This document shows positions 1,145 through 34,761 of a stretch of DNA of 40,066 nucleotides, one piece after another. The stretch comes from Chrysochromulina tobinii. Taxonomy: Eukaryota; Haptophyta; Prymnesiales; Chrysochromulinaceae. The notes under the pieces were generated by a model that saw only the letters and a list, made by a program, of their open reading frames with translations, was not told the DNA's origin and searched no databases. The first letter of the stretch is position 1. The number at the start of each line of letters is the position of its first letter. A program made the position numbers and the translations under genes. The stretch spans positions 1-40,066 of the forward strand of contig JWZX01003264.1 in assembly GCA_001275005.1 (NCBI GenBank), read 5' to 3'.

Positions 1145-3490
1145 ATGGGTGTTGAAGACGTCAAAGCGGCCTTCGAAGGCCTATCGATCCCGTGGGAGTG
1201 CGTCGAGCACAACCCCATCGAAAAGGTGGAGGAGGGCCTCGAGCTCGACTCGATCAAGTCGCTCGGCTGCAGCTTCGCCAAGAATTTGTTCATCAAGGAC
1301 AAGAAGGCTGGCTTCTTCCTGCTCGTGGTGACCGCGGACCGCAAGCTCGACATGAAGAAGCTGCCCGGCCTCCTCGGCAAGGGCACGAAGGAGTTCCGCT
1401 TCGCGGACGAGGCAGCGCTGAAGGAAAAGCTCGGCTGCGGCAAGGGCGCCGCCTCGCCGCTGGGCGTCATGACCGACGCCGCTGGCGAGGTGACAGTGGT
1501 GCTCGACGAGGAGCTGATGGGCGCCGCCAAGATTGGGTGCCACCCGTGCCAGAACGACCACACGCTCGCGCTCACTCCCGATCAGCTCAAGGCCTTCCTC
1601 GCCAAGTACTCGCACGAGCCGATGCTCGTCAACTTTGCGGCGGCGGCTCCTGGCGAGGCGCCGGCCGGCGGCGCCGCGGCGCCGCCGCCGAAGAAGGCGC
1701 CGGCGAAGATAGAGGAGGAGGCGAAGGTGGTGGGCAAGAAGGAGGGCGCCGATTCCAAGGGCCTCGAGTACACCAAGGCGGGCAACTTCCCCAACTGGTA
1801 CCAGCAGGTGATCCGCAAGAGTGAGATGATTGCCTCCCTCATCAGGTGATCCGCAAGAGTGAGATGATTGCCTCCCTCATCAGGTGATCCACAAGAGTGA
1901 GATGATCGAGTTTTACGACATCTCGGGCTGCTACATCCTGCGCCCGTGGTCGTTCAGCCTGTGGGAGGCGATCACCGAGTTCTTCGACGGGCGCATCAAG
2001 AAGATGGGCGTCAAGAACTGTTACTTCCCCATGTTCGTCTCCGAGGCGAAGCTGAACGCCGAGAAGGATCACGTCGAGGGCTTCGCCCCCGAGGTCGCGT
2101 GGGTGACCCGGTCGGGCGACGGCGAGCTCGAGCAGCCCATTGCGATTCGGCCCACGTCGGAGACGATCATGTACCCGGCGTACGCATGCTGGATCCGCTC
2201 GCATCGCGACCTGCCCCTGCTCCTCAACCAGTGGTGTAGCGTCGTGCGCTGGGAGTTTAAGCACCCGACGCCCTTCCTGCGCACGCGCGAGTTCCTCTGG
2301 CAGGAGGGGCACACCGCGCACGGCTCGTACGAGGAGGCGGACAAGATGGTGATGGACATCCTGGGGCACTACAAGGCCATCTACGAAGAGCTCCTCGCCG
2401 TGCCCGTCATCAAGGGCTACAAGACCGAGAAGGAGAAGTTTGCGGGTGGATTTCGGACGACGACGGTGGAGGCCTACGTGCCAGCGACGGGCCGCGCCAT
2501 CCAGGGCGCCACCTCGCACAACCTGGGCAAGAACTTTGGCAAGATGTTCAAGATCGAGTACGAGGACAAGCAGGGACAGAAGCAGATCCCCTGGCAGACG
2601 TCGTGGGGCTTCACCACGCGCTCGATCGGCGTGATGGTCATGGTCCACTCGGACGATACCGGTCTGGTCCTGCCGCCGCGTGTCGCGCCCATCCAGGTGG
2701 TCATTGTGCCGATCGTCATGAGCGGGATGAACCTGGACACGCTGAGCGGCGCGGCGAGCGATCTCGCGTCCCAGCTGCGCGCGAGCGGCGTGCGCGTCGA
2801 GCTTGACGATCGCGACAACTACAACCCCGGCTGGAAGTACAATTATTGGGAGCTCAAGGGAGTGCCGCTGCGCCTCGAGCTAGGTCCCAAGGACCTTGAG
2901 AAGCGGCAGGTGCGCTCTCCCTGGATTGCCCTTGATTACTATTGATTGCAGCTCCGCGATGTCCTCGAGAAGCGGCAGGTGCGCGTGCTGTCCAAGGTGC
3001 TCATGGGCCCTCGGCATGCAAGTGCTCATCACGGCGCCCTCGCCTCTCCCCACAGGTGCGCGTGGTGCGCCGCGATACGAATGCGAAGCTCGACGTGCCG
3101 TGGAGCGTGCTGCCACAGCAGATTGCGCTGCTGCTCGTGCAGATGCAGCACGAGATGCTCGAGCGCGCGACCGCGCTGCGCGACGCGGCGCTCAAAACGG
3201 TGGTCGAGTGGAAGGACTTCGTGCCTACGCTCCAGCTGGGGCACATGGCGCTCACGCCCTTCTGCAACGACGAGGAGGCGACGCACTTTGAGGAGCTCGT
3301 CAAAGAGAAGTCGAAGGCCGAGGCGCTCGCCGCGTCGGGCGCAGAGGCGGAGGACGCGAGGACGTCAACATCGGTCGCCGCCAAGACTCTCTGCATTCCC
3401 TTCGAGCAGCCGCCACTGCCCGAGGGCACTAAGTGCTTCATCTCGGGCAAGCTCGCCACCTGCTGGGTGCTTTGGGGACGCTCCTACTGA
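1145..3490 (+). CDS. Prolyl-tRNA synthetase, eukaryotic/archaeal type, with N-terminal YbaK-like domain
   Basis: Charges tRNA-Pro with proline; class II synthetase, presumably cytosolic. Exons 1145-1807, 1884-2909 and 3056-3490 join in phase 0 to give 707 residues. Residues 1-160 form a YbaK/ProX-like editing-type domain, followed by an Ala/Pro/Lys-rich linker. The catalytic core starts near residue 222. Motif 1 includes [14 protein letters not shown]. Motif 2 has [20 protein letters not shown] (about 342-365). Motif 3 has [18 protein letters not shown]. The C-terminal domain ends in CWVLWGRSY with a terminal tyrosine, as in archaeal/eukaryotic enzymes. A YbaK-like domain fused at the N-terminus is known in some protist enzymes. 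The start ATG (GCGATGGGT) opens the YbaK domain; an upstream in-frame ATG at 1079 would add 22 residues of non-conserved sequence. Both introns are insertion-derived (annotated separately). Confidence 0.95.
1808..1883 (+). mobile_element. Introner-like intron, family B, two tandem 38-nt units
   Basis: The 76-nt intron is two identical 38-nt units. Each begins GTGATCCGCAAG, a copy of the first ~23 nt of the following exon (GTGATCCACAAG in the exon, one mismatch). Each ends with GATTGCCTCCCTCATCAG. The exon copy supplies GT and the tail supplies AG. Removing all 76 nt restores the conserved synthetase sequence [15 protein letters not shown]; keeping one unit would shift the frame. The 18-nt tail is identical to the tail of ferrochelatase-like intron 2 about 13.5 kb away, so it is a shared element and not only a local duplication. 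Confidence 0.88.
2910..3055 (+). mobile_element. Composite introner-like intron carrying family B then family A filler
   Basis: The intron begins GTGCGC after GAGAAGCGGCAG. A short family B stretch follows (GATTGCCCTTGATTACTATT, then GATTGCAG), then a second copy of the exon junction (CTCGAGAAGCGGCAGGTGCG). It ends with a family A module at 3014-3055 (GCATGCAAGTGCTCATC to CCCCACAG). Splicing 2909 to 3056 gives the conserved [18 protein letters not shown]. The internal junction copy (CGGCAG|GTGCGCGT) is the mark of two successive insertions at one site, one from each family. Confidence 0.86.
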
Positions 3491-13491: not shown

Positions 13492-13817
13492 TGAAGCTGA
13501 GCGACTGTGGATGCAGCAGAGGAGGGCGACCGCGTCAGACTCACGCTGCAGGCAGGCGCGCGCGGCGGTCGGGACGCACAGGGAGTGCGGGGCAGACGGG
13601 GCTCGCAGCGCTGCGTGTCCGAGCGTGGTGTGCATACGATGACGTCTCCGTCTCCAAGAGGCCGTGCTGTGGGGAAATTGGCGGATTGATTTTAAGCGCC
13701 GAATCCATTTGAGAAAGGCACCCGAGGCCGGCGCCGATCTCCAGAGAGTAAGATCAATAGAACACATTTCACAGGCGCTGCCCTGGGCGCGACCTCGAGT
13801 TGTCCTTTCCCCTCGGG

Positions 13818-15950
13818 ATGAACAGGCCATCGCGGACGGCGACGCTCATCCTGCTCTCCGCCGCGGCGGGCTTCCGCGCGGGCCCGCGCGTGCCGCCATT
13901 CGGCCACGCCGCCGCCGCTGCACGCTCTAGCGTCGCATGCTCTATTGCTGTGCCCGTGCCGCCCGCCGATAACGATAGGACCGTCGTGGACGGCCCCAAT
14001 GGACCCATCCTCGTGACCAAGGTCAAGGGCAGTTACTACGCCGTCGACGCGACCTGCCCTCACCTCGGCCTTCCGATGAAGCGTGGCAAGGTTGCCGACG
14101 GCGCGGACGGCGTGACGCTCACGTGCAGTTTCCACAACAGTTGCTGGGCGATGAAGGATGGAAGCTGCAAGAAATGGGTGACTGGTGCGCTCGGCATCGA
14201 GAATGAGGCTGCCGCCGGCGTCATGGGCAAGCTGGGTGGCCAGAAAAGGAGCATCAAGTCTTACAAGGTGGCCGTCAACCAGGACGGCTCGCTCACGCTT
14301 GAGTCGAACTCACTGATGCTGCCTGCACAGCCGCCTGCCGCCTCCGTGATCCGTACCATGGTGCCCGATTCGCCGTCGGGCTCCGAGTTCGAGACGCTCG
14401 GCGAGGCCGACCACGGGCCGGTCGGCGTGCTGCTGCTCTCGGTGGGCGCGCCCGAGACGCCCGACGACGTCGAGGAGTACTTGTACAACGTCTTCTGCGA
14501 CCCGGAGATTCGCACCCTGCCTCCCGCCATCTCTTGGGCGTTCAAACGGCCTCTCGCGTGGCTCATCGCGCGCGAACGCGCCGAGGAGGCGCGCGAGTCG
14601 ATGCGGCTCGCGGGCGGGCGCTCGCCGCAGCTAGCGACGATCCAGGCGCAGGCGAAGGCGCTCGGGACGGCGCTCGCTGACCGAGGCGTCGATGCGCGCC
14701 CCTTCATCGCGATGCGCTACTGGAAGCCGTTCACCGAAGATGCCGTCGAGGCCATGAAGGCGGAGGGCATCCAGAAGCTGGTGATCCTGCCGCTGTACCC
14801 ACAGTTCTCCCTCTCGACGTCGGGCTCGGCGCTGCGCGTGCTCGAGCGATTGCTCTACACGGACCCGGGCTTCCCCATGAAAACGTCCGTCGTGCCCGCG
14901 TGGTACAACCGGCCACTGCATGCATGCACGTGCTCACCACGGCGCCCTCCCCCTTCCCCACAGGTCCGTCGTGCCCGCGTGGTACAACCGGCCCGGCTTC
15001 CTGCAGGCGACGGCCAAGGGCATCGCCGATACGCTTGCCTCGCTGCCCCGCGATGCGCGGGGGACGGCGCACGTGCTGTACACGGCGCAGGGCCTGCCGC
15101 GCAAGTACGTCGACGACCTTGGCGACCCATACCAGGAGCAGGTCGAGCGGTGCGTGCAGCTGGTGAGTGACGAGCTCGGCGCGATGGGCATCGCTAACAA
15201 CCGCTCTCTCGCGTACCAAGGTACGATCGTCCCACTGAGGGCCACTGAGGGCCTTGAATGGCCTCGAATGGCCTTTGAATGGCCTCTTGCTTGCCCCAAT
15301 GGTCTCTGCGTGCCCTAATGGCCACTCCTCGCATCCTTCATCAGGCGCCTTCGGGCCGCAGCCTCTGATGACCGCTGATGACCGCTGATGAGCTCTGATT
15401 GCCTCCCTCATCAGGCGCCTTCGGGCCGCAGCAGCTGCGCTGGCTCGAGCCGTCGACCGCGTCTGAAATCGAGCGGCTTGCGGCCCAGGGAGTGCGCTCC
15501 TTAGTGCTCGTGCCCATCTCCTTTGTCTTCGAGCACATGGCCACCCTCAACGTGATGGACTGCGAGTTCGCCGGCGTCGCGGCGGCGTGCGGCATCCAGT
15601 CCTTTGTGCGCGTCCCTACCCTCGGCGTGGAAGAGACGTTCATCGGGGCGCTCGCCACGGTAGTCATGGAGGCCTTGCCCGACCTGTCGCGCCCTTCCTT
15701 CCAGCAGATCAACGCGGGCACGCCCGTCGCCCTCAATATGGTCAATGAGTACACACGGCTGTACACCAAGGACCAGCTGCAGCTAGTCCCGCAGGAGCAG
15801 CCGTGGGGCTTCACGCAGGAGGCGGAGATCATCAACGGGCGCATCGCGATGACCGCGATCACGCTCGCGCTCGCGCTCTCACTCGATCCATCGCTCAAGG
15901 CCATCGTGGCCGTCTACCGAGCCGCTGCCGGTGCCGCCGGCGCCATGTAA
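13818..15950 (+). CDS. Plastid Rieske + ferrochelatase-like + HLIP fusion, probable pseudo-enzyme
   Basis: Exons 13818-14884, 14964-15220 and 15415-15950 give 619 residues. N-terminus MNRPSRTATLILLSAAAGF looks like a signal peptide plus transit peptide of complex plastids. Rieske [2Fe-2S] domain about 55-165, with C80-x-H82 and C103-x2-H106 (ATCPHLG, CSFHNS). Ferrochelatase-like domain about 200-565, clearly plant/cyanobacterial-type (MRYWKPFTEDAVEAM, LPLYPQFSLSTSGSALR). A C-terminal CAB/HLIP motif follows (GFTQEAEIINGRIAM, from 572) with a membrane segment. The invariant His of the SAHG(V/L)P motif is Gln398 (TAQGLP), and the Glu of HIETL is Ala484 (EHMATL), while His482 is kept. Those two residues correspond to human H263 and E343, so heme-forming activity is doubtful. 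A role in porphyrin binding, sensing or electron transfer is inference. Both introns are insertion-derived. Confidence 0.87.
14885..14963 (+). mobile_element. Introner-like intron, family A, 79 nt
   Basis: The intron starts GTCCGTCGTGCCCGCGTGG, an exact copy of about the first 30 nt of the next exon. The family A module follows at 14917-14963 (GCATGCACGTGCTCACC to TTCCCCACAG). Splicing restores PMKT|SVVPAWYNRPGF. The exon copy gives the GT; the module gives CTCAC (branch-point-like), a pyrimidine tract and AG. Confidence 0.92.
15221..15414 (+). mobile_element. Introner-like intron, family B, with duplicated exon start
   Basis: A 194-nt intron. The first part has degenerate GAATGGCC and CCACTGAGGG repeats. 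At 15345-15361 lies an exact copy of the next exon's first 17 nt (GCGCCTTCGGGCCGCAG), itself preceded by TTCATCAG. Family B units (CTGATGACCG) then lead to the tail GATTGCCTCCCTCATCAG. Use of the inner acceptor at 15344 would add sequence ending in a stop. Correct splicing restores SLAYQ|GAFGPQQLRWLEP. Confidence 0.86.
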
Positions 15951-16529
15951 CACTGTGCCCCGGCGGCAGCGGAAGCGTCCAGCCGAACAAGGCAGCTGCC
16001 CCCCCGGGCGCGCCTTGCGGGCGCGGGCTTACCCTACTTGGTATTTGCCCGAACGAGCCACGGCTGCGGCGTGAGCGGTCCGCGGTAAACCGTAAACGCG
16101 TCGACGGCCGCGAGGGAGGCAGCTCGTCGCGCTCGTGCTCTCCTCAGCGGAGATGTCGAGACGGCGTGTGCCATAGAGCATAGTGCGCCTTTGTGTGGAG
16201 CGTGCCAACAAAGTCGCTTGGCCGTCGATCCCGACTATTCGTCTGAGGGCCGGGCAACGGGCCGTTCGAAACGGCGTCCATTCTTAACAAAGATACTCAC
16301 GTCCGACCGCGCATGCACCATTTTTCGATCCGTTTCGCTGCGCTCGACCGATCGCCCACTCCAAAAAGGGACGGGAAATGCAAGTTGCATGTCGACAGTA
16401 ATTTCAGAAATTACCCGTGTGTTCTGGTGATGTGCTTTTTTGGCATGTGCTCGGTTTCCAATTTTGGCAAGTGCTCGCATTTACTTTTTTAGATTTTGAC
16501 GAAATTTTAGTTTTCAGTTTGAGATTTGA

Positions 16530-16685
16530 TGCCACCGATGACCACTGATGACATGACCTCTGATGACCACTGAGATGACCACTGATTTCCGCGGATTACC
16601 ATGACCTCGCTCCTCTCCCCACAGGTGGAGTTATCCAACGGCCGAGCTGTGTATCTCAAGCCAGCCGAGCAGGGGGCGCCTCAGG
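16530..16685 (+). pseudogene. Orphan introner end plus exon-like relic
   Basis: Family B-like units (GATGACCACTGATGACATG) run from about 16530, followed by CTCGCTCCTCTCCCCACAG, a family A-like acceptor end, and then GTGGAG. The next ~60 nt read VELSNGRAVYLKPAEQGAPQ and look coding-like, but no gene can be built around it. It may be a relic of a lost gene or a copied gene fragment. Confidence 0.4.
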
Positions 16686-17201
16686 GTATGGATCTCGGAC
16701 GTGCGGCATGCGCGGCGCGTCGCGGCCGGTCGCTTACTCTATCGCGTTTAGGGCGGAGGCGCGGCGGCTCATCGCATAAACAACGTGTAACGTACCGTAC
16801 AAGCAGGAGGCCCGCGACCCGCGTGGTCCCTGCGTGCTGGCCGGGTTGTGCCGGGTAATATCAATGAATCTCCGATACGCATGAATGCAGGATACATACC
16901 ATAAGTAACCCTGACTCAACCCCCCAGTCCGTACAGTTCGGCCGTCCGTGGAAAGCGAACGGACAACGCAAAGGGGGGCCGCGTCGCCGTCGGCCGTCGC
17001 CTGTCTTCTTGTCGCGCTAGTGTCACGCGGCGGACGCGCCTGTGTCATGTGTGAGGTTAGTGTGAGGTCGCCCCGCGCAGAGCGGAGATAGCGGCTATCT
17101 CCCGCTCCCGGCTCACCCGCCACGCCCGGCGAGGCGGCGTGAGTTTGTTATGTGTCTATTGTGAGTCGACAGTCGTGCCCCTCCGCCTCCATCCCGGACC
17201 C

Positions 17202-17270
17202 TAGTCGCTGTCTAGACTAGGACGCAGAGCCCGGGCCCTCGCGAAGCTGGCCCTAGCGCCTAGGCCAGCT
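17202..17270. repeat. Two short inverted repeats
   Basis: CCTAGTC...GACTAGG (8-nt loop) and AGCTGGCC...GGCCAGCT (10-nt centre) follow each other. Either could fold as a hairpin; no function is apparent. Confidence 0.5.
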
Positions 17271-17738
17271 CTCGGGGCTGTTTGTTCATTCTTCATAAGA
17301 CATTCAGGTCCATCCTGTGCGATCTGCGATGCAACCGATACGGTCGTGCGTTACTTTGCTTGCCCCAGAAGACAACCATTCTAGCGCCTTTGGCGCTAGA
17401 ACTCAGCATGTCCCGCGACTCGCCCTGCACGCTCCAGTCATCCCACCACCCACGGGTCAACAGGCACGACAACACACTGTGAGTGTGTGACGACACTCTG
17501 TCTCGACACTCGAGTCTCGATGGACACGAACAAGTCACAACCATCCACCCCCCCCACAAACCGCAGCGACGATGGTCGATGCACCGCAACACCCGCGGTG
17601 GCGACAACGTACGTGCACACTCAGGAGGCAAGGGCGAGAGCGATGACGAGTACGAGCAAGCGAGCAGGGCAATCGACTCGTACACGCGCCGGGCGTGCCG
17701 CGACTCCCTTGCGGCGCATCACTCACTGCAGGGCAGCA

Positions 17739-18833
17739 TCACCAGTTATAATGTCGACCGATCTGATCAAGGCCACTGTAAGCATACATTCCGGTTGAGA
17801 ACCAGAAGTCGCGACGTTCACTTCCCCACGTCACGAATCCTGCTCTGCTTGCCTCCTCGAAGGAGAAGCCCGCCACCTTGCACTGGTATGGTCGATAGCC
17901 AGCAGCCTTCATCTGCTCGATCGTGAAGCCTGCCGCCTTAGCTTCCTGCGCTGTATGAGTTCCGGGTCCCAGGTGCCCTGCACTGGTGAGCTCCTCAATC
18001 GAGAAGCCAAACACGTTGCACTGGCGTGAAGTATAGCCAGCAGCCTTCATCTGCTCGATCGTGAAGCCCGCCGCCTTCGCTTCCAGCGTTGTATGAGTTT
18101 TGGGTCCCAGGTGCCCTGCACTGGTGAGCTCTTCAATCGAGAAGCCCGCCACGTTGCACTGGTACGAATCATAGCCAGCAGCCTTCATCTGCTCGATCGT
18201 GAAGCCCGCCGCCTTGGCTTCCTGCGCGCTATGAGTTTGCTTTGCTTTCATGGGATTTACATGCACCCAGCGCTGCCGCGTGGTGAGAGAGATTGGCAGA
18301 GCATTGCTACGGGTATAGCGATTGAACTCGTCGGCAGAAAGCTTGGTCAGCTGCCAGGTTGGATCATGTGCAGCAGCGCGAGCGGCAACGCTCCAATCAT
18401 TGCACACGAAAAGCAACCGGCCCAGGTGACTCAGATCCAGAAAGTAGCAAACGGCCATAAGAACGTCCAAAGTTAGATCAGTTGTACAATCCGCCGATTT
18501 TGCTCGGGCCGCAGCATCTCTAACCTCGAAGAATCTTGCTTCAGTAAGTAGGCGTCGCCGGTCGGCCTCATCTTCAATCTGTCGGCGTCGCCGCTCGGCG
18601 TGGTCGGCATCTTCACGCTCCAGAGATTCACGCCGCCGCTTCCGGCACTCAGGTGTCTCCCCAACAGACCACTGCACGCACTCTGCCTCCGCGGACGGTG
18701 CAACGCCGAGGAGGTCCAGCGGATCGGCGCTGGAGCTGGCCGTACAACAACTTGCATCCAACGTTCGGTTCGGCCAGGAGTACGGCGGCGGCATCAAAAG
18801 GTGCAAGCCCCAACCCTGGCAGTCTCGCTGCAC
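17739..18833 (-). CDS. F-box-like protein with three A-G-F/Y repeats
   Basis: Minus-strand frame of up to 364 residues, single exon. After a variable N-terminus comes a charged helix (KRRRESLEREDADHAERRRR). An F-box-like stretch around residues 118-160 follows (LTLDVLMAVCYFLDLSHLGR, LLFVCNDWSVAAR). The C-terminal half has nearly three 46-residue repeats of EAKAAGFTIEQMKAAGY, QCNVAGFSIEELTSAGHLG and THT. Such Ala-Gly-Phe repeats are frequent in algal and protist proteins and probably bind other proteins. If the F-box is real, the protein may select targets for an SCF ubiquitin ligase, with the repeats as substrate arm; this is inference. The start is uncertain: the first ATG is at 18833, with another 13 codons later. 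Confidence 0.6.
   Translation of the reverse strand: MQRDCQGWGLHLLMPPPYSWPNRTLDASCCTASSSADPLDLLGVAPSAEAECVQWSVGETPECRKRRRESLEREDADHAERRRRQIEDEADRRRLLTEARFFEVRDAAARAKSADCTTDLTLDVLMAVCYFLDLSHLGRLLFVCNDWSVAARAAAHDPTWQLTKLSADEFNRYTRSNALPISLTTRQRWVHVNPMKAKQTHSAQEAKAAGFTIEQMKAAGYDSYQCNVAGFSIEELTSAGHLGPKTHTTLEAKAAGFTIEQMKAAGYTSRQCNVFGFSIEELTSAGHLGPGTHTAQEAKAAGFTIEQMKAAGYRPYQCKVAGFSFEEASRAGFVTWGSERRDFWFSTGMYAYSGLDQIGRHYNW
17848..18222 (-). repeat. Tandem 138-bp coding repeat (2.7 copies)
   Basis: A 46-codon unit repeated inside the F-box-like gene. Phase markers CACTGG occur at 17881, 18019 and 18157, exactly 138 bases apart. Copies are highly similar at the DNA level, which suggests recent expansion or gene conversion. 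Confidence 0.85.
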
Positions 18834-19481
18834 ACCAGGTCTCGCTCAATAACCATCATGTACGGATACCTCGAGGAGGAAAACGAAAGGCTTGCTTTCT
18901 TCCCGTTCCACACCGGACACGAGACATATTTTTCCTTCGTTCGTTCGTTCGTTTTATCATGAATCGAAACAGTTCTCGAATGAATTCGTGCATCGCAGCC
19001 GATTCGGCGCTACACGCCGCGCTGCCTCCGGTCCGCGAACGGACTCGCTCACTCCGCGCTGGTGCACTCTCTCCTCGTCCTCTCGATCTAGGACTAGGTT
19101 CGGAGATCCTCTGTTCATTGCCTCTGTTCCTCTCTCTCTCGCTCGAGTCGACTCTCTCCTGAAGTCTCTCCACACTCTGTCTCTCTGATAATCGGATCTC
19201 TCAGTCTGATGATCGCTCTCGCCCGCGCGGCTCCGCACATCGACCGTTACGATGCAGTCTCAGCCCGCCAGCCACGCCGCCTCTGATGACTCTCTCAATC
19301 TCTCTCAATGGACCCATGCGATTTGATTCGTGTCATTCGAGTGCCCGGTCCTACCGGGCCGCCGCCACGCTGTGCACTCGCGTCCCCGCACGCGTCCGAT
19401 GACCTCCGCGCATCTCCATCTCCATCTCTCGCTGCGCGTCCACGTGTCAGGTCCGTCCGAAGACGAGCTTCGTCAGCTCCG
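18834..19481. other. Intergenic region with simple repeats
   Basis: About 650 bases between two minus-strand genes. It contains a TTCG tetranucleotide run (18936-18953), CT-rich stretches and a CTCTCTCAAT duplication near 19290-19310. Near the downstream gene's stop, GAAGACGAGCTTC occurs twice about 26 bases apart. No gene is apparent. Confidence 0.45.
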
Positions 19482-20483
19482 TCAGAAGACGAGCTTCTGC
19501 GTCAGGTGATCGTACCCTCCGCGGGTGTGGTCCAGCGCCCGTGCAGTCATCACCGTGTGCGGTGAGCGGCCGCGCTCAGGCGAGCTCGCTCCCCATTTGC
19601 GTGCCGTGCGAGACGATGCGTGTCGAAGCGGCGAGCCCAGCCGCATCGGCGAGCCCAGCATGCCACCGGCAATCTCGGGCGTACCTGTACCGGGGCGTGC
19701 GAAGCCGAGCGGCATGCCCAGCGGTGACGTGAGCGGCCGCAGGGGCGTGAGCGGCCGATCGGGCTGCAGTCCGAACGGCGAGTTGGGACTCGTACCGGCC
19801 CCAGGCGGAGATGGCACGCGCCCAGCCGAGTCACCCAGCGACGGCAGAGAGCCGCGCGAGGGGCTGCGCAGCGAGCCCGAGGCAGTGTGCAGCGTGCGCC
19901 GGAGCAGACGCTCCTCGGCTGCAAGCGAGGTGGCAAACGTGGACGCGCCCATGTCCCCAGGCCCGCGCTGATCCTGAGCTCTCTCCGCCTCGATCTTGTG
20001 ATCCATCTTGCTGATGAGCGCACGCTCACGGAAGAAGTCGAGCATGCGCACGCCCGGAGACGCCGATGGCAGGTGGGGCACACCATACTTGCGCAGGATC
20101 GCCTCGACTTGCGCCCGCAGAACGGTCGTGTTCTTCACCCAGACTGGGCTGGTGCCCACTCGGCGCACTGCAAAGTGCTGAAAGCTGTTGATGCTTTCGT
20201 CGGTGGACGAACCGGTGCCATAGCGGCCGTACTTATTCTCCTGGCTGCGCAGCATGAAGAGCAGGTCGCGCTCTTCGACGGAGAACATCCGGTCCTGCGC
20301 CAACAGCGGGTCGCCCAGCTGGCACAGGGGCCAGAAGGTGCGATAGTTCTTCGCGAAGACCTTGGCACACAGGGGGAGTGGCAAGCCCTTTGTGACAGCC
20401 CACTCCCAGAGGACGGCCGTTTGTACGTCGCGAAGGTCGGCGGGGTTCGCGACTTGTTTGAAATACGCTGTGCCCTGGCTCAT
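19482..20483 (-). CDS. Unrecognised 333-residue protein
   Basis: Single-exon minus-strand frame with ATG at 20483. The first ~165 residues look folded (QTAVLWEWAVTKGLPLPLCA, NYRTFWPLCQLGDPLLAQD, MFSVEERDLLFMLRSQENK). The rest is Ser/Pro/Gly/Arg-rich and probably disordered, ending DHLTQKLVF. No family is recognised and no signal or membrane segment is seen. It is divergent from the coiled-coil gene at 20695 with a 211-base gap, so the two may share regulation. Confidence 0.7.
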   Translation of the reverse strand: MSQGTAYFKQVANPADLRDVQTAVLWEWAVTKGLPLPLCAKVFAKNYRTFWPLCQLGDPLLAQDRMFSVEERDLLFMLRSQENKYGRYGTGSSTDESINSFQHFAVRRVGTSPVWVKNTTVLRAQVEAILRKYGVPHLPSASPGVRMLDFFRERALISKMDHKIEAERAQDQRGPGDMGASTFATSLAAEERLLRRTLHTASGSLRSPSRGSLPSLGDSAGRVPSPPGAGTSPNSPFGLQPDRPLTPLRPLTSPLGMPLGFARPGTGTPEIAGGMLGSPMRLGSPLRHASSRTARKWGASSPERGRSPHTVMTARALDHTRGGYDHLTQKLVF

Positions 20484-20694
20484 GTCGTGAGCCCTCTACG
20501 CGCGCAGCGCAAGCGCGAAGTCTGAGTGAGTGAGTGATTGAGTCATCGTCTCGCAGTTCCGCAAATTTCTAGGTTCGAACATGTAGAATGAAAGAGACCG
20601 TGATTCTCTACCGAGCTTACTTTCGGGTTCGACGAAATTCAAAACGCATGTCTAATTCCGCATGATGGCTGCTTCTGAGTAGCGCGCCGCCATC

Positions 20695-23600
20695 ATGGCC
20701 ACCGTGCGGGACGCGCACCTCCTCGAGGAGAGCCTCATGGAGAGCCTCCAGGTCGCCCACGTGGAGGCTCGCCAACGAGTCGTCATCCCTCCGTCTAGCT
20801 CTTCATCGCCGCGCGTCCATTCGTCGCCGCGGCTGCTGCGCCCGGGCACCGCTCCCTCCAACGGGCGCCCAGTGCCACACGTGCTACACAGCGTATCCAG
20901 CAGTCACGACGCGGCGACCGTGCAGCGTTGGACGGGCGAGCCTGGAGTAGACGACGAGAGCCTGCCCTCCGAGCGCGAGAACAAATCGTACCTCGAGACG
21001 CTCGCCGCCCGCGCCGCCGACCTGGCCAGCGAGCTGTACCGACTCAAGCTGGTAGGCGGCATGGACCTCACCGGCAAGGTGTCGTCGCCCAGGATGTATG
21101 CAGGCAGGATGGGCTCGTCGCCCAAGATTGCGCCCCACAAAAAGTCCGTCTCGGGCCGAACCGCGGCCGCTTCCGGCCGCTCGAAGAAGAGCGGCAGCGC
21201 CCGGGCGCACCAGAGTGTGGCCGCCGCTGAGCCTACCACGTGTGCGCCGGCGGAGGCGACTGCAAGGGCCGTCTCATACGAGGAGCCGAGCAATCCTTTC
21301 TTCCTCTCCGGACGGCACGTTGCTGCGGCGGACCTGCCGATTACCGGTCAGGAGCACAGCAGCACGCCGAGTGACCCTACCGGCTACGGGCAAGGGCTGG
21401 TGCATGCGATGACCCTGGAGCTCGAAGTCGAACAGGAGAAGCGCGTCGCACACCTGCAGCAGCTGGGTGTGAAGCGGCTGCGCAGCCAGGCTATCGCGCG
21501 TGCCTGGTCGGCGTGGCACAGCACGTGGTTTGAGATGACCAAGGCGCGGCAGGTGATGATTGCCACTGATTGCCTCTGATTGCCACTGAGTGCCTCTGAG
21601 TGCCTCTGACTGCCTCTGATAACATCTGAGATGACCATGGCGCGGCAGGAGGCTGCCCTCGAGGAGTCGAGATCCGAGCTCGCGAACGCGACCCATCTGT
21701 GCGAGCGCCAGCGGCTCGAGCTCGAGTCCCTGCGCGGGCGCGGTGCGGCGGTCAAGGTGGCCTCAGCGTACGCGGTGCATACCGGCACGCCTTGGAGTAA
21801 AGAGGACGAGCTGCGGTTCCATGCGCTTGCGAAGATGGGGGACGACGGCAAGTACAGCGATGGGCTGCGCGAGCTACTCGACCTCGCGGTAGTCGCCACT
21901 ACGGCGCGCGTGTCGGACGCGCTGCGTGAGGCTGCGCATGCACGCGCCGTGTCGGAGCGAGCGGATCGAGAGAGCCTCCAGGTGATGATTGCCACTGATT
22001 ACATCTGATTACATCTGATTACATCTGATTGCATCTGATTGCATCTGATTGCATCTGATTGTCTGATTGGCTCGAGAGCCTCCAGTTGATGATTTCACTG
22101 ATTGTCATCTCTCTGCTGGCCTCTCTGCTGGCCTCTCTGAGGACCACCGATGGCAACTGATGGCTTCTCTCGATCGACTCGCCGCACGCTGCCTGCGCCC
22201 AGCACCTCGAGGCCGCGTTCAACGGGAACGACCCGGCGAAGCTCGTCGCGCGCCGCGCTGCTCGTACAGACGCAACGGACCGCCTCGCGGCTGCGCGCGG
22301 TCGTGGGACGTCTCGAGCATGAGTCAAGCCTCGCGCAGTCGACCCACGTGGCCGATGTACGCAGCCTCTCCGATAGGCTCGTCGCTAGGCACGATGCCCA
22401 TCAGGCGCTACTCCTTGTGGAGCTCGAGCGTGCCGACAGCGCTTGGGCCACTTCGGTCAGCGCCCTCGAGGCACGCATCACCGACATCCGACGCTCTTGG
22501 GCGAGTGAGGTGCATGCGCGTGGCCTCGAGGGCACCCCTGCCCTGCATGCAAGTGCTCACCACGGCGCCCTCCCTTCCCCACAGGTGCATGCGCGTGACC
22601 TCGAGCTCCACCGGCTGCATGCAAGTGCTCACCACGGCGCCCTTCCCCCTTCCCCACAGGTGCATGCGCGTGACCTCGAGCTCCACCGGCGGCAGTCGCA
22701 GCTCGATGCGCTCACCACCAAGCTCGAGGAGGCCGAGGAAAGGCACACCTTTGAGAGTCGCATTGCCGCCACCGATGGGCGCACGCTCAAGGCCGAGGTC
22801 GTGCGGCTCGAGACGGCGCTCGAGGCGGCGCGTTTGGAGCACGGCAGGTTGGAGAAGGAGAAGCAGAAGTTGATCGTGCAGTGCGTGAACCAGTCGGCCG
22901 ATGCGGGCTCGGCGAGTGAGGGGCTGCAGCAGCTGCTGCGGCAGGAGCAGCAGGCGCGCGCCGAGATGCAGGAGAGGGCGACGGGCTGCTTGCGATCGAG
23001 AAGGAGCAGCGGCGCGCGCGTGAGATCGAGCTGCAGCACGAGATCGCGAGGGAGCGCAAGGCGAGCGAGGTGCGCGAGGCTCTGATTGCCTTGATTGCAT
23101 CTGATTAGCCAGGATTGCATCTGATTAGCCATGATTGCGGGCCAGATGCTCAAGGCTGTTGACACCCGATGACTTGATTGCATCTGATGAGCCATGATTG
23201 CGTCCTTGCTTAGGTGCGCGAGGCCGCGATGCTCAAGGCGTACACGGCGCTGCAGGAGGACAAGGCAGCGATGGAACTGACTCTCCACACGAGGCTCAAG
23301 CGCCTCGAGACAGTCCACGAGCAAGAGAAGGCTGTGCTGCGCGCGCGCGTCGACAGACTCTCGAGGCTGCAGGAGGAGGCCATCAATGCGGGCGGCGCGC
23401 AGAAGACGCGTGCGCTGCTCTGGCACGCGGCGCTCAAGTCGAAGACGCAAGCCGAGGATAGCATCTCGTGGCGCGGCGAGAACAGCCCAGCCCTCAATGA
23501 GGCACCCCGGTGGAAGGCGCAGCAGTGGGCGGAGCAGCAGTGGGCGGAGAGTGCCTCCGGCACTGCACCACATCTCGCCTCTTCCTCGACTTCGTACGAC

Positions 23601-32605: not shown

Positions 32606-34761
32606 CGCACAGCGCGCAGCTCGTCGGCCGCACGAGCGCCTCGTGCGCGGAGCCGCGCGGATCACAGATGCTCCCGCTGCGCGTGTGTGGTGCGCTCACG
32701 ACGGCGCCCGCGTGGCAGGAGGGATGGGAATGGTTTGGGTGGGACGTCTCCCCCTTTGACGAGCGTGCTGCCGAGGTGGCGGCGGCCGTCGACGTTGGCG
32801 CGGAATGGGCGGAGGAGGCCGTGGATGCTGCGCCTCGCGAGGAGGCGGAGCGTCGTGGTGAGCACTTGCATGCAGCGCCTCGCGAGGACGTCGCAGCGCC
32901 GCCGCCACCCGTCGCCAAGCTCGCACTCCACTTGGAAGCAAAGTCGTCGGCACCCTCATCGTCGTTCAGCGAGGGTGGTGAGGGTGGCGGTGAGGGTGGC
33001 GGCGAGGGTGGCGGCGAGGGTGGCGGTGAGGGTGGCGAGGGCGGCGAGGGCGGCGACGCCAGCGAAGAGGCAGCGGCGACGCAAAGGGAGTCACGCGACG
33101 CAAAGAGAGGTGCTCAGCACGATGCCCTCGACCCTTCACCATCGCTGAGCGTCGTGATGAGCACCACTCCGGATGCCTCATTGGATGCGGCGGCGGCGCG
33201 TGCCCGGGTCTTCCTCAACACGAAAGGATACGCCGAGCCCGACGTCGAATCGATCCGGCCGTTGGGACGGGTTGGAGGCAAGGAGCTGCTCAAGGCCATC
33301 TATGCGCACGCGGTCCGTCTGTCGGAGAAGAGCTTCGCAGTGCCCTCGACGTCATCACGCGCAGGCCCACCGGCGCCGCTGCTGCGCCATGCGTTGGGTA
33401 AGCCGGCGGGCTGCCTCTGCCTCGAGCTCTGCGAGCCGGGAGCCTACGACGCGCTGCGTGCTGCGTACCGCCGGCTCGCGCGCATCGAGGGTCATCAAGG
33501 GTCATCCAGCATCGAGGGTCATCAAGGGTCATCCAGCATCGAGGGTCATCAAGCTGGCGGCCCCGCCGAGACGATCCGCGAGCTGCTGCCGATGCTTGAT
33601 GAGCTTCGTCATCGCATAGCCGTGGGTCGTGTGGCACTCCAACGGCTCAGTGTGCTGCTGCCACCACCGCCCGCGGGCGCCGCGCCGACAGCCTCGTTGG
33701 CCATCGGGCTGAGTCTCCTCTCAATGGCTGGCAGTAACTCCCACCCGGGTGCGGAGGCCGCTCGGCAGGCGGCGCCTGAAGTGGCCACGGCACTGGAGCT
33801 GTGGCACCGGTCCGGGCTCACCGAGGCCGCGTCGTCGCTCGCTGCCGACCTGAGCCTGCACGCGCACACGCTGGCTCACCACCTGAGCAAGTCGATGCCC
33901 AAGTCGCCTGAGGGCGAGCTGCTGCCCGGCATCACCCAGATGCCACCACACCTGGCCGTCGTTGAGCTATGCACACCCGCCCACCTCGAGTGCTTCCGAC
34001 GCATCGCCACCTGGGGGGATGTGACACCCGAGCCTTCAGGCCCAGGCACCAACCAGGTCCCCACAGGGGTGGGCCTCGGCCTCCGGAGCGGCGTCTCCAA
34101 AAACGTCCCCGCTGCAAGCGCCTCGATGAGCTCGGCGGCGCCGCCCAACACGCAATGGGCGCAGCTCCTCGCGCAGCAGCTCCTCTGCACGCTCTGGCGG
34201 CTCTACCGGTGTGGCGCACTCACGGTGCCCATGGACCCCGAGGTGCAACAGACGGCCGAGCTGCTCGAGCACCAGCACCGTCGCGCGCGCCAGGCGCAGC
34301 TCGAGCAAGAGCGACGAGAACGCATCGGGCAGCCGTCGCCGCCGCCGCCGGGCCCTGATGACATTCCCGACGAGCGCGACTCGCCTTATTACGGACGCCA
34401 CCTGCGGGCAGTGTGCGTGCTGCAAGCGCTGCATCGACAGCGCCAGCTGCAAGTGCAGAAGCAGAAGCAGCAGGCGGCGCTGCACCGGCTCGGGCACGAG
34501 CAGAAGCAGCTCGCGAAGCGTACTACCGGCGCCGCCGCACCCACCTTTACAATGGCCACGAGCAATCCCAAGCCGGCCAAACGCCCCGCGCCGCAAGGAG
34601 CGCTCCACCGGCTCGGGCAGGAGCGGCCAGCTGGGCCGAAGCTCCCGTTCCTCACCGCCCTGATCGTGCCGCCCAAGGCCCACTTCAAGGACGGCGAGGT
34701 GCCGCGCATGGAGCTCTACCACTCCGAGAACGCGCCCGGCTACGTACACTTCTCGTCGTGA
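32593..34761 (+). CDS. Large unrecognised protein with Gly/Glu tract and helical C-terminus
   Basis: Plus-strand frame of 722 residues. Order: WEWFGWDVSPFDERAAEVAA; a segment holding a reversed family A element (AAPREEAERRGEHLHAAPRE); an EGGGEGGGEGG tract; ARARVFLNTKGYAEPDVESI; a tandem IEGHQGSSS repeat; several helices (AQLLAQQLLCTLWRLYRCGA); and a basic Gln/Arg-rich coiled end (ALHRQRQLQVQKQKQQAALH). Ends MELYHSENAPGYVHFSS. No family is recognised. The compositional bias and length suggest a real gene and not a shadow. It may continue the preceding frame. Both in-frame repeats keep the frame open. Confidence 0.6.
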   Translation: MAAVTHSAQLVGRTSASCAEPRGSQMLPLRVCGALTTAPAWQEGWEWFGWDVSPFDERAAEVAAAVDVGAEWAEEAVDAAPREEAERRGEHLHAAPREDVAAPPPPVAKLALHLEAKSSAPSSSFSEGGEGGGEGGGEGGGEGGGEGGEGGEGGDASEEAAATQRESRDAKRGAQHDALDPSPSLSVVMSTTPDASLDAAAARARVFLNTKGYAEPDVESIRPLGRVGGKELLKAIYAHAVRLSEKSFAVPSTSSRAGPPAPLLRHALGKPAGCLCLELCEPGAYDALRAAYRRLARIEGHQGSSSIEGHQGSSSIEGHQAGGPAETIRELLPMLDELRHRIAVGRVALQRLSVLLPPPPAGAAPTASLAIGLSLLSMAGSNSHPGAEAARQAAPEVATALELWHRSGLTEAASSLAADLSLHAHTLAHHLSKSMPKSPEGELLPGITQMPPHLAVVELCTPAHLECFRRIATWGDVTPEPSGPGTNQVPTGVGLGLRSGVSKNVPAASASMSSAAPPNTQWAQLLAQQLLCTLWRLYRCGALTVPMDPEVQQTAELLEHQHRRARQAQLEQERRERIGQPSPPPPGPDDIPDERDSPYYGRHLRAVCVLQALHRQRQLQVQKQKQQAALHRLGHEQKQLAKRTTGAAAPTFTMATSNPKPAKRPAPQGALHRLGQERPAGPKLPFLTALIVPPKAHFKDGEVPRMELYHSENAPGYVHFSS
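32830..32888 (-). mobile_element. Reverse-oriented family A introner fragment fixed in an exon
   Basis: GCGCCTCGCGAGGA occurs at 32830-32843 and 32875-32888. Between them lie 31 nt whose reverse complement begins TGCATGCAAGTGCTCACCACG, identical to the family A module for about 21 nt and then degenerate. Insert plus one duplicate is 45 nt, a multiple of three, and the host frame stays open. In this orientation the element cannot supply an acceptor to the host gene, so it is translated. Confidence 0.8.
33484..33553 (+). repeat. In-frame 27-nt tandem repeat
   Basis: Two full 27-nt units and a 16-nt third start (ATCGAGGGTCATCAAG in each). They encode IEGHQGSSS twice, then IEGHQ. Each unit contains GAGGGTCATC and ends CATCGAG, so AG/GT pairs are present. 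Its plan is like the 2x38-nt intron of the synthetase gene. Confidence 0.88.

What the first reader, a model, noticed from the sequence alone, without database searches (positions are those of the whole stretch)
14885..22659. Introner family A: a ~42-nt mobile 3'-intron module shared by unrelated genes
The same module (GCATGCAAGTGCTCACC ... CCCCACAG) ends four intron units in three unrelated genes: 3014-3055 (synthetase), 14917-14963 (ferrochelatase-like), and 22543-22584 and 22618-22659 (coiled coil). It carries CTCAC/CTCAT (branch-point consensus), a pyrimidine tract and AG, but no 5' splice site. The GT comes from a copy of the neighbouring exon (21-31 nt in three of the units). These duplicates are longer than typical DNA-transposon target duplications. 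Introners are known from Micromonas, Aureococcus and other groups; this sequence family with long exon duplicates may be new.
Basis: partly seen in the sequence, partly recalled or inferred. Interest (0 to 1): 0.9.

Follow-up and report, generated by a model that had tools for sequence, protein, structure and literature searches.

The report
Mobile half-intron with long exon copy
In the genome of an unnamed eukaryote, a mobile sequence of about 42 letters that carries only the back half of an intron has entered many genes, and each entry copies about 30 letters of the gene itself, which serve as the missing front half, so new introns seem to arise there often and recently.

Summary
The four units are at the stated places, and the module's first 15 bases occur 1,084 times exactly in this 53-Mb genome (reversed control 0). 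A strict form, core plus CCCCACAG, occurs 474 times; 406 are followed directly by GT.
In a 283-kb sample, 73 of 99 copies with a 3' splice site have an exon duplicate; in 50 non-tandem copies it is 17-54 nt, median 30.5. The intron is one exon copy plus the module; removing it restores the pre-insertion sequence.
Splicing is supported by a database protein identical over 340 residues to the product without two of the window's introns, by coding phase and by four restored domains; no RNA reads were available.
Database relatives of the 22-kb gene show copies present or absent at four sites, so insertion is recent.
The 5' end is ragged, duplicate length varies, and there are no inverted repeats, unlike described introners with short duplications. 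An unrelated intron 3' end shows the same architecture.
I file it as a new variant of introner. The machinery is unknown; a retrotransposition-like step is my guess, not shown.

The parts
14885..14914 (+). intronic copy of the exon duplicate (30 nt) in the ferrochelatase gene; supplies the 5' splice site AAAC|GTCCGT
   Evidence: identical to 14964-14993
14915..14963 (+). module A (49 nt with filler, core from 14922) with CTCAC branch-point-like motif, pyrimidine tract and CCCCACAG 3' splice site; intron = 14885-14963
   Evidence: P0027 encodes the product without it
14964..14993 (+). exonic copy of the duplicate
22510..22584 (+). first A intron of the coiled-coil gene: exon copy 22510-22530, filler, module 22545-22584
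   Evidence: two, one or no copies here in relatives
22585..22659 (+). second, tandem A intron: exon copy 22585-22615, module 22617-22659
22660..22690 (+). exonic copy of the duplicate (31 nt)
2979..3055 (+). A intron in the prolyl-tRNA synthetase gene: degraded exon copy 2979-2990, module 3014-3055; exonic copy 3056-3067
   Evidence: gene named by Pfam and homologues
32850..32873 (-). core-only copy without 3' splice site, 45-nt unit with a 14-nt duplicate (score below the swapped-pair 99% level), inside a 793-aa open frame on the + strand (leans antisense to it)
22848..22884 (+). empty target site 4 (37 nt, begins CAG|GTTGGAG); filled in relatives P0246 and P0248
22881..22904 (+). empty target site 3 (begins GTGCGTG); filled in P0245
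22954..22979 (+). empty target site 2 (begins CAG|GCGCGC); filled in P0242, P0244 and P0248
15221..15414 (+). family-B intron of the ferrochelatase gene (GATGACC/GATTGCC repeats, 3' end CCCTCATCAG) with an internal near-copy (15334-15362) of its own end and the following exon's start
   Evidence: absent from P0027
23070..23213 (+). predicted family-B intron of the coiled-coil gene; duplicate GTGCGCGAGGC at 23070-23080 and 23214-23224

Best explanation
This is an active introner family. A short non-autonomous element inserts into DNA at a staggered break whose nicks lie roughly 17-54 bases apart, so the target (X) ends up on both sides of the insert (M): X-M-X. M is usually the 3' part of a longer element: branch-point-like CTCAC, pyrimidine tract, AG. 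When the AG end lands directly in front of a latent GT or GC donor in sense orientation, the upstream X copy supplies the 5' splice site, X+M is spliced out and the mRNA is restored exactly. Insertions that meet neither this nor an in-frame condition are probably lost. Shown: copies, duplicates, GT rule, sense orientation, presence/absence, frame restoration. Inferred: spliceosomal removal of most copies, the branch point, selection as cause of the GT rule, and a target-primed reverse-transcription-like insertion, favoured by variable duplicate length, one precise end and a ragged, 5'-truncated other end.
For: 1,084 exact 15-mers, 912 exact 16-base cores, 474 strict 3' ends of which 406 are followed by GT. 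Sample: 73 of 99 copies with a 3' splice site have a duplicate at score 12 or more (99% level of swapped pairs in a like test: 12.1); it starts right after AG in 54 of 73; boundary GT 49 and GC 7 of 73, about 12 of the other 17 being alignment-edge shifts by eye. In another scoring 49 of 78 true flank pairs exceed the 99th percentile of 1,449 swapped pairs. Length 17-54, median 30.5, n = 50 non-tandem; identical copies in 11 of 41. Sense strand 80 of 95; 130 of 146 flanks held out. Of 44 introns with length not divisible by 3 and resolved phase, 28 fit the spliced and 8 the unspliced frame. Four of four scanned spliced translations give unbroken JmjC, DSPc, SNF2 and Ion_trans domains. P0027 equals the twice-spliced ferrochelatase product over 340 of 340 residues. 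Presence/absence at four sites of one gene. 5' truncation series: 22 of 119 copies extend into TTGATTGCCACTGATGACCTGCCTT by score 3 or more, control 1.5% of 2,380; 96 genome copies of the extended form.
Against: No RNA reads. P0027 could be an intron-poor allele rather than cDNA; its first 23 residues differ from the window. The presence/absence data are predicted proteins from contigs I could not read. 26 of 99 copies lack a duplicate at the threshold, and all but 50 kb of the fetched sample was chosen by exact hits, so it favours well-kept copies. No mobilising protein is linked to the family; the 26 reverse-transcriptase matches show only that such domains exist in the assembly. The 3' end is not a poly-A or simple repeat as in typical LINE/SINE copies, and some copies without a 3' splice site seem truncated at the 3' end too. 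Near-absence of in-frame offset donors could mean GT-directed insertion instead of selection. About five of the 73 boundaries do not fit the GT/GC rule. The GT..AG unit test was not clean: 71 of 150 at the true period, but 57 at period +1 and 5-37 at the others.
Confidence: 0.88

Rival explanations
1. Non-autonomous DNA transposon (MITE-like introner) moved by a transposase with a short staggered cut, as described for Micromonas and Aureococcus.
For: In the 2022 survey 59.2% of the 130 families with both features determined have short duplications, inverted repeats or both, and one splice site borrowed from the target duplication is known (PMC9860276).
Against: No inverted repeats: 3 of 15 end positions match. 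Duplicates vary from 17 to 54 nt, whereas a transposase makes a nearly fixed length (established knowledge). The 5' end is ragged.
Confidence: 0.15
2. Templated insertion during break repair or replication template switching: polymerase copies M from elsewhere and returns about 30 bases upstream.
For: Explains variable duplicate length, ragged ends in copies without a 3' splice site and why unrelated 3' ends (families A and B) share the architecture. Repeats at new Daphnia introns are ascribed to staggered breaks (PMC4202315, passages).
Against: Gives no reason why one module should be copied over a thousand times with the same AG end; the Daphnia repeats are 4-12 bp.
Confidence: 0.3
3. Reverse splicing of an excised intron into RNA, then reverse transcription and recombination, as proposed for fungal introner-like elements.
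For: The AG end abuts a downstream exon that starts with GT in 406 of 474 strict copies.
Against: That route predicts a whole intron and no target duplication (fungal families lack duplications, PMC9860276); here half the intron is locus-specific exon copy. Copies without a 3' splice site exist.
Confidence: 0.07
4. Tandem duplication of exon segments, AG|GT within the repeat, with no mobile element.
For: Tandem arrays such as 22510-22690 and L025 7023-7285 do look like secondary duplication.
Against: M is foreign to the exon and shared by unrelated genes; empty sites carry X once and no M.
Confidence: 0.02

Closest known systems
Introners (Gozashti et al. 2022, PMC9860276; abstract and sections 4, 15 and 23 read)
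   Same: Many copies in unrelated genes, one splice site carried and the other taken from the target duplication, recent gains.
   Different: They mention 3-9 bp duplications; here the median is 30.5 nt and lengths vary. Their search needs similarity near both intron ends, which a half-intron cannot meet. No inverted repeats here; ragged 5' end; copies without a 3' splice site, mostly in units divisible by three where a duplicate is seen next to a short copy.
Amoebophrya introner elements (PMC7789003; passages read)
   Same: Repeated introns with direct repeats at the borders.
   Different: Direct repeats of 3-5 nt, 8-20 nt inverted repeats, non-canonical splice sites.
Daphnia neointrons from staggered break repair (PMC4202315; passages read)
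   Same: Direct repeat of the exon end at the far end of the new intron; gain studied in populations.
   Different: Repeats 4-12 bp; no shared mobile module in the passages I read.
Micromonas and Aureococcus introners (Huff et al. 2016; not held; recalled and as cited in PMC9860276)
   Same: Introns made genome-wide by insertion.
   Different: Recalled as DNA-transposon type with short fixed duplications and inverted repeats.
LINE/SINE-type retroposons (established knowledge)
   Same: Variable target duplication, one precise end, 5' truncation.
   Different: Only about 42 nt, ends in a 3' splice site instead of a poly-A or simple tail; no linked reverse transcriptase found.

Membership tests
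Introner | Same sequence forms introns in many unrelated genes | tested here: met
   1,084 and 474 copies genome-wide; ferrochelatase, ProRS, JmjC, DSPc, SNF2 and Ion_trans genes
Introner | Insertion creates new introns (empty sites exist) | tested here: met
   Presence/absence at four sites of one gene at protein level; DNA of the filled alleles not readable
Introner | Removed by splicing | tested here: inconclusive
   P0027, coding phase, domains; no RNA reads
Introner | Similarity reaches both splice sites (criterion of the 2022 survey) | tested here: not met
   The 5' half is locus-specific exon copy; a survey criterion, not the concept
MITE / DNA transposon | Terminal inverted repeats | tested here: not met
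   3 of 15 positions
MITE / DNA transposon | Short target duplication of fixed length | tested here: not met
   17-54 nt, sd 7.7, n = 50
Non-LTR retroposon (LINE/SINE-like) | Variable-length target duplication and 5' truncation | tested here: met
Non-LTR retroposon (LINE/SINE-like) | Poly-A or simple-repeat 3' tail | tested here: not met
   Copies end in CCCCACAG or alike
Non-LTR retroposon (LINE/SINE-like) | Mobilised by a reverse transcriptase | not testable with these tools
   26 RVT_1 matches in the assembly, none linked to the module

The most novel reading that the evidence does not exclude
A single retrotransposition-like insertion process with long staggered nicks feeds several unrelated intron-fragment modules into genes. 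Because the target duplication is long enough to hold a donor site, truncated half-introns become seamless introns, and copies that cannot be spliced survive as in-frame coding inserts. Intron gain would then be a by-product of capturing intron fragments, not of one dedicated transposon, and might be coupled to latent 5' splice sites.
Probability: 0.35. Interest if true: 0.85.

Novelty: new variant of a known kind. Interest (0 to 1): 0.75.

Why it matters
Where spliceosomal introns come from is an old open question. Here a lineage seems to be gaining introns now, with filled and empty sites among close relatives, an intact record of each target, and a simple arithmetic (remove module plus one exon copy) that explains why the new introns can be harmless. 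The long variable duplicate points to an insertion chemistry not described for introners in the papers I could search, and it makes this genome a place to test the mechanism directly. Surveys that need similarity at both splice sites would miss such half-introns, so they may be more widespread than counted.

Tried and rejected
GT..AG at the exact period over non-repetitive direct-repeat pairs: 71 of 150, but period +1 gave 57, so I do not lean on it. De novo direct-repeat scan: 278 pairs against 0 in third-order Markov sequence, but many are ordinary tandem repeats. Family B half-introns with their own 5' splice site could not be counted: too few (3 or less per pattern). Orientation of nine copies without a 3' splice site by codon model: five lean sense (one weakly), the window copy leans antisense, three undecided. 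Viral spread: one viral-collection contig bears the 23-mer near its end; the rest of it looks bacterial or phage-like to my eye (no annotation run), so I take it as a chimaera; a 19-mer gave 0. Bacterial and archaeal genomes: 0 for the 23-mer. Tandem-duplication origin: rejected, since M is foreign. The 9 of 10 divisible-by-three count was noticed after looking; two of the ten are one array, and four of the ten duplicates score below the swapped-pair 99% level (the six above it: 5 of 6). Papers whose passages I saw but do not lean on: PMC12768974, PMC9481584.
Full report
What was checked. Modules end with AG at 3055, 14963, 22584 and 22659 and begin with GCATGCAAGTGCTCA (one mismatch at 14922). 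The window is one contig of an unnamed assembly of 53,154,812 bases in 2,253 contigs; that it is a eukaryote is my inference from its introns. Exact 15-mers there: 524 forward and 560 reverse, 0 for the reversed pattern. The 16-base core GTGCTCACCACGGCGC: 912. Core plus CCCCACAG within 25 bases: 474, of which 406 are followed at once by GT. The tool warns that counts of repeats may be lower bounds.

Sample. I held 71 sequences of 283,316 bases: the window, 20 stretches chosen for listed 15-mer hits, 10 stretches of 5 kb chosen without regard to hits, and 40 short stretches around strict 3' ends. In the 50 kb not chosen for hits there are 2 core copies, both in L033. With up to 5 mismatches in 24, 126 copies were found; 7 near ends were dropped and 119 scored; 99 have a 3' splice site by a list of AG endings and 20 have none.

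Anatomy. In 73 of the 99, the sequence after AG is repeated upstream of the module with local score 12 or more; in a like test the 99% level of swapped pairs was 12.1. The repeat begins directly after AG in 54 of 73. At the matching upstream place the dinucleotide is GT in 49 and GC in 7. Of the other 17, about 12 look to me like alignment-edge shifts with a GT or GC nearby, and about five do not fit (L018 -5544, L019 -4045, L025 +2364, L067, L073). After AG stands GT in 83, GC in 9, GA in 5 and GG in 2 of 99. The upstream context is G|GT(A/G)CG, a donor-like consensus. In another scoring, 49 of 78 true flank pairs exceed the 99th percentile of 1,449 swapped pairs. In 50 non-tandem copies with score 14 or more the duplicate is 17-54 nt, median 30.5, sd 7.7; of 41 gap-free pairs 11 are identical and the median divergence is 4.4%. 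So the intron is one exon copy (X) plus the module (M), median 78 nt, and removing it restores X in single copy.

Ends. The 3' joint is sharp. The 5' joint is ragged: 0 to 22 bases lie between X and the core in the 50 non-tandem copies. Upstream of the core, 22 of 119 copies continue into TTGATTGCCACTGATGACCTGCCTT with score 3 or more (control 1.5% of 2,380 random places), in a graded series from 3 to 25; 96 genome copies match the extended form. Some extended copies carry a donor-like start themselves and lack the pyrimidine tract and AG; there X seems to supply the 3' splice site. The half-introns thus look like truncations of a longer intron-like element. There are no inverted repeats (3 of 15 end positions). 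The only yUnAy motif in the module consensus that I wrote out is CTCAC, 25 bases before the end; that it is the branch point is inference.

Splicing. (1) P0027, a 363-aa JGI protein, equals the window's ferrochelatase product over 340 of 340 residues to the stop when both the A intron 14885-14963 and the B intron 15221-15414 are left out. Its first 23 residues differ from the window, and its source is not stated, so cDNA is likely, not certain. (2) Using base frequencies by codon position from two verified genes, 44 of 73 introns have a length not divisible by three and resolved phase on both sides; 28 agree with the spliced and 8 with the unspliced frame; with stricter margins 25 and 7 of 37, and 23 and 4 of 32. 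(3) Of ten spliced translations, chosen by eye, I scanned the four that looked like known domains: all four give one domain running through the joint: JmjC, DSPc, SNF2 and Ion_trans; the other six, ferrochelatase among them, were not scanned that way. The SNF2 case uses a GC donor. (4) The modules lie in the predicted sense strand of coding sequence in 80 of 95 cases by a codon model trained on two genes only, and in 130 of 146 flanks by a model trained on the other half in assumed sense.

Recent movement. Eight database proteins match the 22-kb gene. Seven of them and the window were aligned; P0249 was left out because it diverges on both sides of the shared part. Site 1 (VHARDLELHRR) holds two copies in the window and P0242, one in P0243 and P0244, none in P0245; P0246 shows two and P0247 one module-like stretch there, read out of frame at first, and P0248 begins inside it. 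Site 2 (ARAEMQERA) is filled in P0242, P0244 and P0248 and empty in the window, P0243, P0245, P0246 and P0247. Site 3 (CVNQSADA) is filled only in P0245. Site 4 (LEKEKQKLIVQC) is filled in P0246 and P0248 only. Where the insert keeps the frame, a repeat of the target stands on both sides; in P0244 site 2 shifts the frame and the second repeat is not visible as protein. Five of the seven (P0242, P0243, P0246, P0247, P0248) end by reading into the B intron, so they probably come from DNA; P0244 ends in the window's frame-shifted way; P0245 may be cDNA or a relative. In the window the three empty targets stand once, beginning GTTGGAG, GTGCGTG and GCGCGC.

Copies without a 3' splice site. Of these 20, ten short ones have a duplicate next to the core; their units are 54, 56, 54, 51, 69, 48, 48, 60, 60 and 45 bases, nine of ten divisible by three. 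Four of the ten duplicates (L010 -7793, L014 +3089, L018 +1616, window -32873) score below the 99% level; without them it is 5 of 6. Five extended copies have units 88, 90, 76, 74 and 80, one of five divisible; the last five show no credible duplicate. One array lies in an open frame of 649 aa with a TruD domain. By eye, X begins with GT in one or two of the ten, so the GT rule of the spliced class is more simply read as survival than as targeting. Against this, in-frame offset donors are nearly absent in the spliced class although inserts of 15-23 residues seem tolerated elsewhere; I leave that open.

Not only family A. The unrelated 3' end (C/T)TCATCAG has the same duplicate in 27 of 57 cases (29 dropped as repetitive), and in 15 of 25 when followed by GT (7 dropped); two control 3' motifs, not restricted to GT, give 2 of 31 and 0 of 17 (one dropped); family A in the same test 39 of 53. 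The long duplicate therefore seems to belong to the way introns are gained here, not to one module.

Mechanism. Shown: mobile module, long variable duplicate, one sharp and one ragged end, donor borrowed from the target, recent insertion. Inferred: staggered nicks some 30 bases apart. Variable duplicates with 5' truncation are the mark of target-primed reverse transcription; templated break repair is the main rival. The assembly holds 26 reverse-transcriptase matches, none tied to the module.

What is known. Gozashti et al. 2022 (PMC9860276; abstract and sections 4, 15 and 23 read) mention 3-9 bp duplications, find introners that borrow a donor from the duplication, and require similarity near both intron ends. 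Amoebophrya introners have 3-5 nt direct repeats (PMC7789003, passages); Daphnia neointrons 4-12 bp (PMC4202315, passages). A survey of 213 introns of all classes reports border repeats of 4-30 bp, mean 11.4, found by manual inspection at 70% similarity or more (PMC11782384, passages). The listings of searches (some capped) show no paper that I recognised as describing introners with long variable duplicates; most subscription papers are not held, Huff et al. 2016 among the missing.

Noticed in passing
window 13761-15170: A Rieske [2Fe-2S] domain and ferrochelatase lie in one open frame; the relatives P0004, P0006 and P0008 list only the ferrochelatase domain. Fusion or two adjacent in-frame genes; not resolved.
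   Followed up: no
window about 22979-22985: One base seems missing relative to P0243 (ERADGLLAIEKE against ERATGCLRSRR), shifting the frame of the coiled-coil gene in this assembly; error or real mutation unknown.
   Followed up: no
window 15221-15414, 21550-22160, 23070-23213 and other loci: Family-B introns built of about 10-nt repeats (CTGATTGCC, CTGATGACC), each with a branch-point-like CTGAT; long exon duplicates here too.
   Followed up: partly
L010 6251-7810 (-): The piece GCTCACCACGGCGC appears amplified in tandem; the frame matches the Plasmodium histidine-rich protein model below its cut-off, probably by composition.
   Followed up: no
L039 4254-4554 (IMG/VR 3300027760_000958): A contig of the viral collection whose last 300 bases hold module A with a 3' splice site; likely a chimaeric contig with DNA of this or a related eukaryote.
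   Followed up: partly
L024 3169, L023 1594, L027 1939-2003: Several A introns seem to use GC instead of GT as donor (7 of 73 at the boundary).
   Followed up: partly
end of X in 50 non-tandem copies: Weak preference for C before and G after the end of the duplicate (30 of 50 and 24 of 50; no test made), perhaps a trace of the second nick.
   Followed up: no
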